A DNA stretch of 64,000 nucleotides from Streptomyces sp. Tu6071 (GTDB taxonomy: Bacteria > Actinomycetota > Actinomycetes > Streptomycetales > Streptomycetaceae): NCBI RefSeq assembly GCF_000213055.1, contig NZ_CM001165.1, positions 6,503,445-6,567,444 of the forward strand, read 5' to 3'. The notes under the pieces are model-generated. The model saw nothing but the letters and a program-made list of their open reading frames with translations, did no database searches and was not told the DNA's origin. This document shows, in pieces, positions 1 through 6,932 of this stretch. The position numbers were made by a program, and so were the translations under genes. Within the stretch, counting starts at the first letter, position 1, and the number at the start of each line of letters is the position of its first letter.

Positions 1-24
1 CTCGAAGGACTGCTCGTCACTCAT
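1..24 (-). CDS. Start of an unidentified gene running off the left edge
   Basis: Only eight codons are visible (Met-Ser-Asp-Glu-Gln-Ser-Phe-Glu). The ATG is at 24-22 and is preceded on the minus strand by a purine-rich ribosome binding site (AGAGG six bases before the start). It follows the EPSP-synthase/ligase fusion gene in the same direction, but a 16-bp hairpin lies between them, so joint transcription is uncertain. The product cannot be named from eight residues. Confidence 0.6.
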
Positions 25-156: not shown

Positions 157-3147
157 TCAGTCCTCCTGCGGCCTCAGTTCCCTCGCTCTCTCGCGCAGTG
201 CGAACTTCTGCACCTTGCCGATCGGGTTGCGCGGCAGCACCCCGAGCGGTTCGAGCCGTTCGGGCCAGTACTGCTTCGCCACCTGGTGCTCGTCCAGGTA
301 CGCGCGCATCTCGCCGAAGCCGAGCCGCTCGCCCTCCTTGCACACCACGAAGGCGCAGGCGCGTTCGCCGAGCCGCGCGTCGGGCATCGCGACGACGGCG
401 ACGTCCTCGACGGCCGGGTGCGCGAAGAGCAGCTGCTCGATCTCGGCGACAGGGATCTTCTCGCCGCCCCGGTTGATGACGTCCTTGACGCGCCCGGTGA
501 TCCGCAGATACCCGGAGGCGTCGAGCGTCGCGAGGTCGCCCGTGCGGTACCAGCCGTCCTCCGTGAACACCTCGGCGGTCAGGTCGGGCCGGTCCAGGTA
601 GCCGTCGAACACGGTGGGGGAGCGCAGCTCGAAGTTGCCCTCGACCCCGGCCGGGAGCACGTGCCCCTGGTCGTCCGTGACGCGCAGCTCGATCCCGTCG
701 AGCGGACGCCCGTCCGAACCCCAGCGCTGCGCCGGTTCGTCCCCGGGCGCCGAGAGCGCCCCGAGGCACGTCTCGGTCGTCCCGAAGGCCCCGCACACGT
801 CCGCGCCGAGCACCCGCCCGGCCCGCTCGGCGAGCCCGCGCGGCACCTGCGCCCCGGTCGCGACGAAGATCCGCAGCTTGCGCGGCATGTCCCCGCCCTC
901 CTCGACCGCCTTCACGAGGTCGGTCAGGAACGGCGTCGCGGCCTGCACGAAGCTCGCCCCGTGCGTGTTGAGCGAGGCGAGCGCGCGCTTCGCGTCCCAC
1001 TCGGCCTGCGTGATCTGCGGGACTCCGAGGACGAGCGCCAGCGTCATCCCGTAGAGGAACCCCGTCTGGTGCGCGAGCGGCGAGGGCACCCAGATCGCGT
1101 CCCCCGCGTGCAGCCCGAGGTGCCGGATCTCCATCGAGACCGCGCGCACGAGGTTCCGCGAGGGCTGCGTGACGCCCTTCGGCTCCCCGGTGGTCCCCGA
1201 GGTGAACAGGAGCTGCGCGGTCGCGTCGGGCGAGGGCACGTACGCGTCGAGCGCGGCGCGGTCCACCTCGGTGCCCGCGAGCGCCTTCTCCCAGTCGTGC
1301 ACCCTGACACCCGAGCCGTCCGCCTCGGGCAGCGCCGCGCTCCCGCCCTCCTCGGCGAGCACGACGAGCCGCGCCAGCTCCCCGCGCTCCTCCGCGTCGA
1401 GCCCCATGACCTCCTCGGCGGGTCTCCGGTTCCGGTACCGGTCGGCGACGACGAGCACCTTCGCCCCGGACCGGCGCAGCACGAAGCCGAGTTCCCGCTC
1501 CCGGAAGAACGGGATGACGGGGCAGCACACCGCGCCGATCCGCAGCGCGGCGAGCGAGAGCACGACGAACTCGACGCGGTTCGGGAGCTGGTACGCCACG
1601 TTGTCCCCGGGCCGCACCCCGAGCCCGAGCAGCAGCGAGGCCGCCCGCTCGACCCGCTCGTGCAGCTCACGCCACGTCACGGTCTCGTCCCTGTCGGCCC
1701 GTACGTCGACGACCGCGACGTCGTGCGGACGGCTCGCGGCCCGCCGCCGCAGCCACTCGGGGAGCGTCACGCGCGCCGCGAGGTCCGGCTTCGCGACCTC
1801 CTTCTCCAGCCGCCTCTGCCGGGGCCGTCCCGAGGGCGCGGGCCCGTCCTCGACGCTCATCGGCACGCCGAGCGTGTTCATCGCGTCGAGGAAGGTCGGG
1901 TACGAGATCCGGTACGCGTTCGGGTACGTCAGCGTCGAGTGGCCGCGCGCCCGCGAGGACGCCACGGCGAGCGACATCAGGACCCGGTGGTCGTTGAACG
2001 AGGAGAGCTTCGCGCCCACCAGCCCCTCGACCCCGCGCACCCGCAGCGCGTCCCCGTCCAGCTCCAGGTCCCCGCCCATCGCGTTGAGCTGGAGCATCGC
2101 CGCGGCGCGGTCGGACTCCTTGAGCCGCGTGTGCGCGATGTTGTGGAAGACGGACTCGCCGTAGGCGAAGGAGCCGAGCGTGGAGAGGATCGGCAGCATG
2201 TCGGGCACGTCCCGGCAGTCCACCTCGACCCCCTTGAGCATCGGCGTCTCCTGCCGGATGCGCACCCCGCCGGCCGCCTCGTCCAGCTCCATCGGGACCC
2301 CCATCGCGCGCGCGATGTCGAGGAAATGGAACTCGGGGTGGTCGGCGGGACCGCCCTCCAGGCGGGTCATGCCCTTGAGCAGGACGTCCGAGGGGTGCAG
2401 CGCGGCGGCGGCGATCCCGAAGGCGGCCGAGCCGATGTCGGGCGGCAGCGTCAGCTCGGTCGCGACGGCCGACTGCCCCGGCTCGACGTCGAAGCGCCGC
2501 CAGTCCTCGGAGACCGTGACCGCGAGGCCGAACTGCCGCATCATCGCGACGGTCAGTTCGAGGTACGAGCGCTCGTTCAGCTCGCCCTCGACCTCGATCG
2601 TCGTGTGCCCCGTCGCGAACGGCGCGAGCAGGATGAGCCCGGAGATCCACTGCGAGAGCGTCCCGGCGATGCGCACGTGCCCACCGCTCGGGCGCCGCGC
2701 GGTGACGTGCACGGGCGGGCAGTCGTCGGCCGACTCGACCCCGACGCCCATCTGCCGCAGCGCGGTGAGCAGGGGGCCCACGGGACGGCGGCGGAAGTAC
2801 TTCTGCCCGGTCACCGCGACATCGCGGTCCGAGAGCGAGGCCAGGCCGATCATGAAGTAGAGGGTGGTGCCGGAGGAGCCGGCGGACACGGCCGCGCGGC
2901 GCGGCCGGTAGCGCCCACCGAGACCGTGCACCACAAAGGTGTCGCCCTCGGTGGTGATCTTGACCCCCAGGCCGCGCAGCAGCTGCACGGTGTACTGGAC
3001 GTGCCGGGCGTCGGAGAGCCCGTGCACGCGGCTGACGCCCTCGGCCAGCGAGGCGAGGATCAGCGCGCGGTGCGCGTGGTACTTGGAGTTGGGGACGAGG
3101 ACTTCACCGGTGAGCTGGTGCTGAATCCCTTTGACAAGAAGGTGCAT
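157..3147 (-). CDS. EPSP-synthase-like / acyl-CoA ligase fusion protein
   Basis: A 996-residue two-domain protein. Residues 1-430 resemble AroA (EPSP synthase): PNSKYHAHRALILASLAEG carries Lys22 at the same index as E. coli AroA, LSQWISGLILLAPF matches the substrate-loop region, RLKESDR lies near residue 343 and DHRVLMSLAVAS near 385. The canonical LGNAGTAMR motif is replaced by SAGSSGTTLYFM and loses its arginine, so ordinary EPSP synthesis is doubtful. A linker of about 25 residues leads to a full AMP-forming ligase (456-996) with LLFTSGTTGEPKG, GWYRTGDLA, RVKDVINRGGEKIPVAEIE and NPIGKVQK. The ligase half looks most like cyclohexanecarboxylate-CoA or fatty-acyl-CoA ligases. I infer a shikimate-derived ring acid activated as a CoA ester. 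The ATG at 3147 puts Lys at 22 and has AGGGAG 12 nt upstream; an ATG at 3171 is possible. No frameshift is seen. Confidence 0.8.
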   Translation of the reverse strand: MHLLVKGIQHQLTGEVLVPNSKYHAHRALILASLAEGVSRVHGLSDARHVQYTVQLLRGLGVKITTEGDTFVVHGLGGRYRPRRAAVSAGSSGTTLYFMIGLASLSDRDVAVTGQKYFRRRPVGPLLTALRQMGVGVESADDCPPVHVTARRPSGGHVRIAGTLSQWISGLILLAPFATGHTTIEVEGELNERSYLELTVAMMRQFGLAVTVSEDWRRFDVEPGQSAVATELTLPPDIGSAAFGIAAAALHPSDVLLKGMTRLEGGPADHPEFHFLDIARAMGVPMELDEAAGGVRIRQETPMLKGVEVDCRDVPDMLPILSTLGSFAYGESVFHNIAHTRLKESDRAAAMLQLNAMGGDLELDGDALRVRGVEGLVGAKLSSFNDHRVLMSLAVASSRARGHSTLTYPNAYRISYPTFLDAMNTLGVPMSVEDGPAPSGRPRQRRLEKEVAKPDLAARVTLPEWLRRRAASRPHDVAVVDVRADRDETVTWRELHERVERAASLLLGLGVRPGDNVAYQLPNRVEFVVLSLAALRIGAVCCPVIPFFRERELGFVLRRSGAKVLVVADRYRNRRPAEEVMGLDAEERGELARLVVLAEEGGSAALPEADGSGVRVHDWEKALAGTEVDRAALDAYVPSPDATAQLLFTSGTTGEPKGVTQPSRNLVRAVSMEIRHLGLHAGDAIWVPSPLAHQTGFLYGMTLALVLGVPQITQAEWDAKRALASLNTHGASFVQAATPFLTDLVKAVEEGGDMPRKLRIFVATGAQVPRGLAERAGRVLGADVCGAFGTTETCLGALSAPGDEPAQRWGSDGRPLDGIELRVTDDQGHVLPAGVEGNFELRSPTVFDGYLDRPDLTAEVFTEDGWYRTGDLATLDASGYLRITGRVKDVINRGGEKIPVAEIEQLLFAHPAVEDVAVVAMPDARLGERACAFVVCKEGERLGFGEMRAYLDEHQVAKQYWPERLEPLGVLPRNPIGKVQKFALRERARELRPQED

Positions 3148-5764: not shown

Positions 5765-5998
5765 ATGATCAAGAAGATCGTCGCCACGGTCGCCGCGACC
5801 GGTGGCCTCGTGCTCGCCGGTGCGGGCCTGGCCTCGGCCGACGCGGGCGCCCAGGGTGCGGCCGTCGGTTCCCCCGGCGTGCTCTCGGGCAACGTCGTGC
5901 AGGTTCCCGTGCACGTCCCGGTGAACCTCTGCGGCAACACGATCTCCGTGATCGGTCTGCTCAACCCGGCCTTCGGCAACACCTGCGTCAACGCCTGA
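5765..5998 (+). CDS. chpH: Short chaplin ChpH
   Basis: A 77-residue secreted amyloid-forming surfactant that coats aerial hyphae and spores. A Sec signal peptide (positive MIKK start, hydrophobic core, cleavage after ASA near residue 26) precedes one chaplin domain with AQGAAVGSPGVLSGN, VPVHVPVNLCGN and IGLLNPAFGN. The two cysteines of long-lived short chaplins are present (in NLCGN and NTCVN). TAGGAGG lies 6 nt before the ATG. It is followed by two hairpins and then chpC in the same direction. ChpE is the other short type, but adjacency to a long chaplin matches the chpH-chpC pair of S. coelicolor. Confidence 0.93.
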   Translation: MIKKIVATVAATGGLVLAGAGLASADAGAQGAAVGSPGVLSGNVVQVPVHVPVNLCGNTISVIGLLNPAFGNTCVNA

Positions 5999-6010
5999 TC
6001 CAGGCATGAC

Positions 6011-6032
6011 GTCACCCCCGGCCGGGGGTGAC
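6011..6032 (+). terminator. Perfect 11-bp hairpin after chpH
   Basis: Positions 6011-6021 pair perfectly with 6022-6032. It is the first of two tandem hairpins between chpH and chpC. Confidence 0.65.
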
Positions 6033-6035
6033 CCT

Positions 6036-6070
6036 GCGGCCCCGGAGCGCGCCACGCGCTCCGGGGCCGC
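6036..6070 (+). terminator. Perfect 15-bp hairpin between chpH and chpC
   Basis: Positions 6036-6050 pair with 6056-6070 around a 5-nt loop. With the preceding hairpin it should separate chpH mRNA from chpC, so chpC probably has its own promoter within 6071-6130. Confidence 0.75.
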
Positions 6071-6140
6071 GGCTCTCACCACACCGCGCACGCGCGAGGT
6101 GCCGTGCGCTTCGAAGCTGTGACTACGACAGGGAATTGCT

Positions 6141-6932
6141 ATGCGACAGGTCACGCGCAAGGGCCTGATGACTGTGGCGGCCGCCTCCGGCGTGCTCGCC
6201 GTCACCGGTGGCTACGCGGTCGCCGACTCCGGCGCCCAGGGCGCGGCCGTGGGTTCGCCCGGCGTCCTCGCGGGCAACCTCGTGCAGGCACCGGTCGATG
6301 TGCCGGTCAACGTGTGCGGCAACACGGTCGACGTCGTCGGCCTGCTCAACCCGGCCTTCGGCAACCACTGCCAGAACGGCTCGGGCCAGTCCCGTCCGGG
6401 CGGCTACGGCGACGAGGACGGCGGCGGCCACCACGGCGGCCACCAGAGCGGGGGCGGCCACCACGGCGGCGGCCACCAGAGCGGCGGCGGCGCCCACGCG
6501 GGTGGTCCCGCCACCAACTCGCCCGGCGTCGGCTCCGGCAACGAGGTGCAGATCCCGGTGGACGTGCCGGTCAACGCGTGCGGCAACAACATCTCGGTCA
6601 TCGGACTGCTCAACCCGGTCTTCGGCAACGACTGCGCCAACGAGTCGACGCCGCAGCACCCGGAGCACCCCGGCAACCCGGGCACGCCCGAGAAGCCGAA
6701 GCCGCCGAAGACCCCGGAGACGCCGGAGCCCCCGAAGACTCCGGAGACGCCGAAGCCCCCGGTCGAGCGCACCACGCCCCCGGCCCCGCAGATCTCGGTG
6801 AAGACCCCGGCGCACACGCAGCAGCTCGCCGAGACCGGCAGTGAGGTCCCCGCGGGCGCCCTCGGTGCCGCCGCGGCCGGGATGCTCCTCGCGGGTGCCG
6901 TGGTCTACCGCAAGGCCCGCGCGAACGCCTGA
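6141..6932 (+). CDS. chpC: Long, sortase-anchored chaplin ChpC
   Basis: A 263-residue cell-wall-anchored chaplin. Order: signal peptide (about 1-30), chaplin domain 1 (SGAQGAAVGSPGVLAGN...LLNPAFGN), a Gly/His-rich spacer (about residues 95-125 with repeated GGHHGG and GHQSGG), chaplin domain 2 (NSPGVGSGN...LLNPVFGN), a Pro/Lys/Thr/Glu wall-spanning stalk, then the sorting signal LAETG, a hydrophobic helix and an RKARANA tail. The LAXTG motif is the class E sortase signal expected for long chaplins. ChpC presents chaplins at the cell surface so that short chaplins can polymerise. AGGGAA lies 7 nt before the ATG. No sortase is in the window. Confidence 0.95.
   Translation: MRQVTRKGLMTVAAASGVLAVTGGYAVADSGAQGAAVGSPGVLAGNLVQAPVDVPVNVCGNTVDVVGLLNPAFGNHCQNGSGQSRPGGYGDEDGGGHHGGHQSGGGHHGGGHQSGGGAHAGGPATNSPGVGSGNEVQIPVDVPVNACGNNISVIGLLNPVFGNDCANESTPQHPEHPGNPGTPEKPKPPKTPETPEPPKTPETPKPPVERTTPPAPQISVKTPAHTQQLAETGSEVPAGALGAAAAGMLLAGAVVYRKARANA

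What the first reader, a model, noticed from the sequence alone, without database searches (positions are those of the whole stretch)
157..3147. EPSP-synthase-like domain fused to an acyl-CoA ligase
Seen: one open frame joins an AroA-like domain (Lys22 and RLKESDR kept, LGNAGTAMR changed to SAGSSGTTLYFM, losing its arginine) to a complete AMP-forming ligase that looks like cyclohexanecarboxylate-CoA ligases. Known: Streptomyces make cyclohexanecarboxyl-CoA starter units from shikimate, and AroA homologues have been reported in such pathways. Inference: this fusion could dehydrate a shikimate-type ring and activate it, so it may begin an undescribed or shortened route to a ring starter unit.
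Basis: partly seen in the sequence, partly recalled or inferred. Interest (0 to 1): 0.75.

Follow-up and report, generated by a model that had tools for sequence, protein, structure and literature searches.

The report
Fused cyclohexanecarboxyl-CoA starter-unit enzyme (PlmJK type)
The gene is a known kind of two-part bacterial enzyme that helps turn shikimate into the cyclohexane ring used to start some antibiotics; the unsolved part is what its first half, a reshaped relative of the herbicide target EPSP synthase, actually does.

Summary
The fusion is real: one minus-strand frame (window 3147 to 157, 996 aa) joins an EPSP-synthase-like domain (J) to a complete AMP-forming CoA ligase (K). Downstream, outside the window, lie an acyl-CoA-dehydrogenase homologue (L), a ChcA-like SDR, an OYE-type reductase (M), a FabF-like KAS and a second CoA ligase. 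JK, L, ChcA, M matches the order in which PMC5852498 lists the phoslactomycin starter-unit genes plmJK, plmL, chcA, plmM. So the route is not undescribed, and this is a new member of a known kind. J is not a decaying AroA: in 85 J sequences all 15 alignable EPSP-synthase substrate or catalytic positions (recalled list) are invariant. Acid/base residues and 6 of 7 PEP contacts are kept, but S197 (3-phosphate contact) is always Glu, S23 Tyr, K411 Ile. J therefore probably acts on an unphosphorylated shikimate-type ring; direct dehydration versus PEP-driven activation is open. In this strain a dedicated KAS, not a PKS, adjoins, so the product may be an omega-cyclohexyl fatty acid (inference).

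The parts
157..3147 (-). fused gene, J-K (PlmJK homologue), 996 aa
1849..3147 (-). J half: EPSP-synthase-like domain (aa 1-433 counted from the ATG at 3147)
   Evidence: Pfam EPSP_synthase; nearest solved chains are EPSP synthases, best E 9.4e-51
214..1752 (-). K half: AMP-binding and AMP-binding_C domains, with SGTTGEPKG, YRTGD and PIGKVQK stretches
   Evidence: stretches read (their roles recalled)
2851..2886 (-). SAGSSGTTLYFM loop (J aa 88-99): E. coli N94S, R100Y
2572..2574 (-). J Glu192 in place of the EPSP-synthase Ser197 (3-phosphate contact, role recalled)
   Evidence: Glu in 85 of 85 J rows, Ser in 16 of 16 AroA or AroA-like rows
2107..2127 (-). RLKESDR (J aa 341-347): R338, K340, E341, D343, R344 of E. 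coli kept
1..24 (-). first codons of the next gene, L (acyl-CoA dehydrogenase homologue, PlmL-like), which continues outside the window (G000:C1:6502299-6503468)

Best explanation
The gene is a PlmJK homologue at the head of a cyclohexanecarboxyl-CoA (CHC-CoA) cassette (JK-L-ChcA-M). K adenylates a shikimate-type acid and makes its CoA thioester (inferred from family; a paper title that I recall but could not read speaks of a shikimoyl-CoA synthetase). L, ChcA and M then dehydrate and reduce the ring to CHC-CoA (gene roles from print and recall). J is a catalytically competent, repurposed EPSP synthase that binds the unphosphorylated ring and helps remove a ring hydroxyl (inferred). Glu192 sits where the 3-phosphate contact used to be and could protonate the leaving 3-OH (hypothesis). 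In this strain CHC-CoA is probably handed to the adjacent dedicated FabF-like KAS rather than to a polyketide synthase (inferred).
For: Same set and listed order as plmJK, plmL, chcA, plmM. Of 80 named loci (identity floors J 55, K 50, L 60, ChcA 60, M 44%): J and K 80, L 73, ChcA 64, all five 54; of the 7 without L, 3 have at most 2 bases of contig left after K. A PKS lies directly upstream of JK-L-ChcA-M in L061 (Pfam on its first 918 aa) and, by like sequence, in L076, with a LuxR-type regulator (named by eye) after M. Of 396 genomes of the phylum the same 5, ours included, hold L at 56% identity or more and J. Of 443 J columns 99 are invariant in 85 rows, yet 15 of 15 alignable substrate or catalytic positions are (hypergeometric P 7e-11, a rough guide since rows are related); 11 of the 16 listed positions equal E. 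coli. The strain has a separate AroA (366.6 bits). KAS2 is 43% identical to the strain's best other KAS but 62-76% to cassette-linked KAS of more distant Streptomyces and other actinomycetes.
Against: No assay and no structure model (answered busy). J scores above the AroA equivalog cut-off, so an EPSP-synthase-type reaction is not excluded by profile. The binding-site list is recalled, not from a call, and the strain's own AroA also departs from it (D313E, N336H, K340H). The set is not fixed: L and ChcA are missing with kilobases of DNA at hand in L060, L063, L065 and L066, and ChcA in nine Cellulomonas and Arthrobacter loci. The KAS beside Eremiobacterota cassettes is only 36-40% identical. 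The fatty-acid outlet rests on neighbourhood alone.
Confidence: 0.88

Rival explanations
1. J is an ordinary second EPSP synthase, perhaps boosting shikimate flux or giving glyphosate tolerance, fused by accident.
For: J passes the AroA equivalog cut-off (316-319 bits); K22, D313, E341, R344 and R386 are kept in 85 of 85.
Against: S23Y, S197E and K411I in 85 of 85 J against Ser, Ser and Lys in 12 of 12 AroA rows (E. coli, the strain's own and 10 unnamed Streptomyces hits; 4 odd AroA-like rows dropped). The 5 solved EPSP synthases shown keep S23, GNAGTAMR and S197 (read by eye). J stands next to K in 80 of 80 loci, and the genome has another AroA.
Confidence: 0.05
2. J is a dead scaffold or substrate-docking domain for K, without catalysis.
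For: Several substrate contacts are lost; the recalled paper title credits the synthetase and an FAD-dependent dehydratase, not J.
Against: All 15 alignable active-site positions are invariant in 85 rows from at least two phyla by record title; J persists as its own frame in four genomes.
Confidence: 0.15
3. The cassette in this strain is a degradation route for cyclohexanecarboxylate or shikimate rather than a biosynthetic one.
For: The best K hit is a catabolic ligase model (TIGR03208), and L has hits to cyclohexanecarboxyl-CoA dehydrogenase models (130.8 and 189.3 bits, far under cut-offs 575 and 650).
Against: Related cassettes sit in PKS clusters or beside KASIII plus ACP (4 of 80), and cassette-type KAS is near in 19 of 80 loci.
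Confidence: 0.08

Closest known systems
PlmJK of the phoslactomycin cluster (PnP1, LmP1)
   Same: Listed in the same order with L, ChcA and M (table in PMC5852498); relatives in a like setting, L061 and L076, are fused J-K.
   Different: Here no PKS adjoins; a FabF-like KAS and a second CoA ligase do. PlmJK itself was not at hand for a direct comparison, and the passages seen do not describe its J half.
EPSP synthase (AroA)
   Same: Family by sequence, acid/base residues, most PEP contacts.
   Different: Uniform S23Y, D49H, R100Y, S197E, K411I; 27% identity to E. coli AroA and to the strain's own AroA.
Cyclohexanecarboxylate-CoA ligase (TIGR03208)
   Same: Best NCBIfam model for the K half.
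   Different: 471 bits against a cut-off of 792, so not a member; fused to J.
ansJ/ansK/ansL/ansM-chcA of ansatrienin and the asukamycin CHC genes (recalled)
   Same: Same pathway by recall.
   Different: Not compared: the asukamycin paper is not held, and ansatrienin searches gave no pathway paper.

Membership tests
PlmJK-type CHC-CoA cassette | EPSP-synthase-like and AMP-ligase domains in one protein (the J half of PlmJK itself is inferred) | tested here: met
PlmJK-type CHC-CoA cassette | followed by L, ChcA, M in that order | tested here: met
PlmJK-type CHC-CoA cassette | linked to a PKS (as in phoslactomycin; not needed for the enzyme set) | tested here: not met
   the only KAS homologue near is the FabF-like one; the next at E 1e-20 or better lies about 870 kb away
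PlmJK-type CHC-CoA cassette | makes CHC-CoA from shikimate | not testable with these tools
   needs enzymes or labelled feeding
EPSP synthase (AroA) | curated equivalog cut-off | tested here: met
   316 and 319 bits over 287
EPSP synthase (AroA) | 3-phosphoshikimate contacts (10 recalled positions) | tested here: not met
   6 of 10 kept; S23Y, S169 gap, S197E, N336H in 85 of 85 J; S169 is also a gap in 8 of 16 AroA or AroA-like rows and N336 is Asn in only 8 of 16
EPSP synthase (AroA) | PEP contacts (7 recalled positions) | tested here: inconclusive
   6 of 7 kept in 85 of 85; K411I
EPSP synthase (AroA) | converts S3P and PEP to EPSP | not testable with these tools
   assay needed
AMP-forming acyl-CoA ligase | AMP-binding and C-terminal domains, P-loop and A10 lysine motifs | tested here: met
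   (motif roles recalled)
Cyclohexanecarboxylate-CoA ligase TIGR03208 | curated cut-off | tested here: not met
   471.2 of 792.3 bits

The most novel reading that the evidence does not exclude
J is a PEP-spending deoxygenation helper: it still binds PEP (6 of 7 contacts fixed) and puts an enolpyruvyl group on a hydroxyl of unphosphorylated shikimate or a derivative, turning a poor leaving group into pyruvate that a later cassette enzyme expels. This would be a new use of the EPSP-synthase fold. In hosts where no PKS adjoins, such as this strain, Arthrobacter and Eremiobacterota, the cassette would feed omega-cyclohexyl membrane lipids.
Probability: 0.15. Interest if true: 0.75.

Novelty: new member of a known kind. 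Interest (0 to 1): 0.35.

Why it matters
The JK gene is in print, but its J half is a tightly conserved family that passes the automatic AroA threshold (ours at 316-319 bits, an unfused one at 325, cut-off 287) and so is probably annotated as EPSP synthase, although its 3-phosphate contact is always replaced. Its role is a specific, testable gap in what I could learn of the CHC-CoA pathway. The spread of the cassette to places without an adjoining PKS, including ribosomal-protein gene neighbourhoods, suggests uses beyond antibiotics.

Tried and rejected
Ordinary EPSP synthase: rejected on the pocket changes and the separate AroA. Chance frame or assembly join: rejected. Plasmid collection with the J half: 63 records, none at 60% identity or more; 20 rows were shown, the best at 33%, 18 of the 20 annotated as 3-phosphoshikimate 1-carboxyvinyltransferase; no J seen.

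Of the papers listed only PMC5852498 holds plmJK. The asukamycin paper, the phoslactomycin cluster paper and a guessed ACS Catalysis DOI are not held. A paper that I recall by title only, 'Biosynthesis of Cyclohexanecarboxyl-CoA Highlights a Promiscuous Shikimoyl-CoA Synthetase and a FAD-Dependent Dehydratase', was not found (searched 'shikimoyl'), so J's role may already be settled there. Searches gave only reference-list or unrelated passages.

Own errors corrected: the rows from minus-strand loci (7 of 14 AroA-like rows L020-L033; also unfused J L144 and L147) were read on the wrong strand. One search replaces them; the 80 J rows were not affected. In one search four odd AroA-like rows (L020-L023) were dropped from the AroA set, leaving 12. 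The M count of 64 includes one 387-base fragment (L066), so 63; the count of 54 complete sets is not affected. One search printed nothing. No PDB chain close to L or ChcA was found: best matches are general acyl-CoA dehydrogenases and FabL.

Full report
What is there. On the minus strand of the window one frame runs from 3147 to 157. Its first 433 residues are an EPSP-synthase-family domain and the rest is a full AMP-forming ligase. The nearest solved chains for the first part are EPSP synthases (best E 9.4e-51), far ahead of MurA enzymes (best 2.9e-07). The window lies at G000:C1:6503445-6567444, so I read the chromosome to its left. The next genes on the same strand are an acyl-CoA-dehydrogenase homologue (6502299-6503468), an SDR nearest to FabL-type enoyl reductases though under that cut-off (6501408-6502244), an OYE-type oxidoreductase (6499140-6501203), a FabF-type KAS over its cut-off (512.5 of 493.75 bits; 6497824-6499068) and a second acyl-CoA ligase (6496089-6497759).

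What it is. A table in PMC5852498 (I saw passages and the table) lists for phoslactomycin-class clusters plmJK (AMP-dependent synthetase and ligase), plmL (short-chain-CoA dehydrogenase), ChcA (cyclohexenylcarbonyl-CoA reductase) and plmM (NADH:FMN oxidoreductase); the text speaks of six genes for the CHC starter. Our operon has the order of that list. The passages do not describe a J half in plmJK. CHC-CoA as the phoslactomycin starter is stated in PMC9730843 and PMC7496768 (passages). I could not align with PlmJK itself, but L061 has a type I PKS (Pfam on the first 918 aa of a 3289-aa frame) directly before JK-L-ChcA-M, L076 has a like frame, and both have a LuxR-type gene (named by eye) after M, as in the list.

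How widespread. One scan of named genomes with five J sequences gave 218 relatives, of which the best 80 were kept. In all 80 K follows J. 76 of 80 have a closed frame of at least 950 aa; L088 is broken and three run off contigs. By the identity floors, L is present in 73, ChcA in 64, a complete set in 54. L060, L063, L065 and L066 lack L with 1.9 to 8.3 kb after K at hand. L063, L065 and L066 also lack ChcA and M there (a 387-base M-like fragment in L066 apart). L063 carries a crotonyl-CoA carboxylase/reductase (582.7 bits, cut-off 378.6), whose relatives in L065 and L066 are 97 and 83% identical. The same three organisms hold a second locus with the full set (L058, L069, L071), so the partners may act in trans (inference). 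In a genus survey J relatives of at least 55% identity were found in 6 of 295 genomes, ours included, one (G096) broken; the other rows there are 30-35% AroA or AroA-like.

Unfused form. In a sample of 396 genomes of the phylum the L search gave matches of at least 56% in 5, and the J profile hit the same 5; weaker L-like hits (41-45%) occur as second copies in four of these and alone in G351 and G426, which have no J. In the four genomes other than our own (family f18, another class) J is a frame of 441-445 aa; 4 of 60 relatives of G391 have it, the same four. I read two of the four neighbourhoods: in L148 J and K overlap by 8 bases, then come L, ChcA and, in place of M, a luciferase-like (LLM) protein; L149 has J, K, L and ChcA in a row by tblastn. 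A tree of 40 rows (24 of the 85 J) puts all J in one branch (100), the unfused pair at 99 and the fused group at 86; quick method, long branches flagged.

Is J active? Over 85 J rows (80 loci, ours and 4 unfused) 99 of 443 columns are invariant, but 15 of the 15 alignable EPSP-synthase substrate or catalytic positions are (hypergeometric P 7e-11; the rows are related, so a rough guide). The position list is recalled, not from a call. Kept as in E. coli: K22, R27, G96, R124, S170, Q171, D313, K340, E341, R344, R386 (11 of 16), and also D384 and H385. Changed in every J: S23Y, S197E, N336H, K411I, with S169 a gap. Against 12 AroA rows that are themselves invariant there, J differs uniformly at S23Y, S47A, D49H, R100Y, S197E, Q271H and K411I. 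N336 and S169 also vary among AroA rows and say little, and the strain's own AroA departs at D313 and K340. I read this as an enzyme whose 3-phosphate site was rebuilt while catalysis and most anion contacts were held, that is, one acting on an unphosphorylated ring. This is inference.

Outlet in this strain. A whole-genome search with the adjacent KAS finds no other KAS homologue at E 1e-20 within about 870 kb, so no PKS adjoins. That KAS is 43% identical to the strain's best other KAS, 84-98% to the KAS beside cassettes of close Streptomyces, and 62-76% to those beside cassettes in more distant Streptomyces, Microbacterium, Acidothermus and actinomycete or Solirubrobacterales MAGs; such a KAS is near in 19 of 80 loci. 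The KAS beside Eremiobacterota cassettes is only 36-40% identical. This favours a dedicated elongation step here, perhaps towards omega-cyclohexyl fatty acids, which are known from Alicyclobacillus (passages, PMC10562698). Not shown.

Verdict. The interpretation points to the right pathway, but the gene set is already in print. What remains interesting is the chemistry of J, unassigned as far as I could read, and the spread of the cassette to places without a PKS. No structure model could be made. On rechecking, wording and counts were mended; the odds did not need to change.

Noticed in passing
L020-L023 and L039-L042: Four unnamed Streptomyces genomes carry another AroA-like paralogue with S23P, D313N, K340H, E341K and K411L, in a neighbourhood whose genes look alike by eye; a different repurposed EPSP synthase.
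   Followed up: partly
L102, L118 (also L074): In Arthrobacter and Sinomonas the cassette lies beside ribosomal-protein genes and, in L102 and L118, EF-Tu and EF-G genes on the other side (named by eye), a core-genome place rather than a metabolite cluster.
   Followed up: no
L150, L151: Two of the genomes with unfused J also hold a paralogous set, K-like (31%), L-like (42-45%) and ChcA-like (39%), with no J match in the 14 kb read; perhaps a related pathway for another acid.
   Followed up: no
L148 6777-7793: A luciferase-like (LLM) protein takes the place of the OYE-type reductase M after ChcA.
   Followed up: partly
L084, L086, L102, L107, L111, L112, L116, L118, L122: ChcA is not found within the fetched DNA next to J-K-L-M in Cellulomonas and several Arthrobacter loci, so the ring may be left less reduced or another reductase serves.
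   Followed up: no
G000:C1:2418233-2419489: The strain's other AroA has Glu at D313 and His at N336 and K340, unlike most AroA rows.
   Followed up: no
window 5765-6932: Two small secreted proteins with repeated cysteine-containing chaplin-like segments (named by eye, recalled).
   Followed up: no
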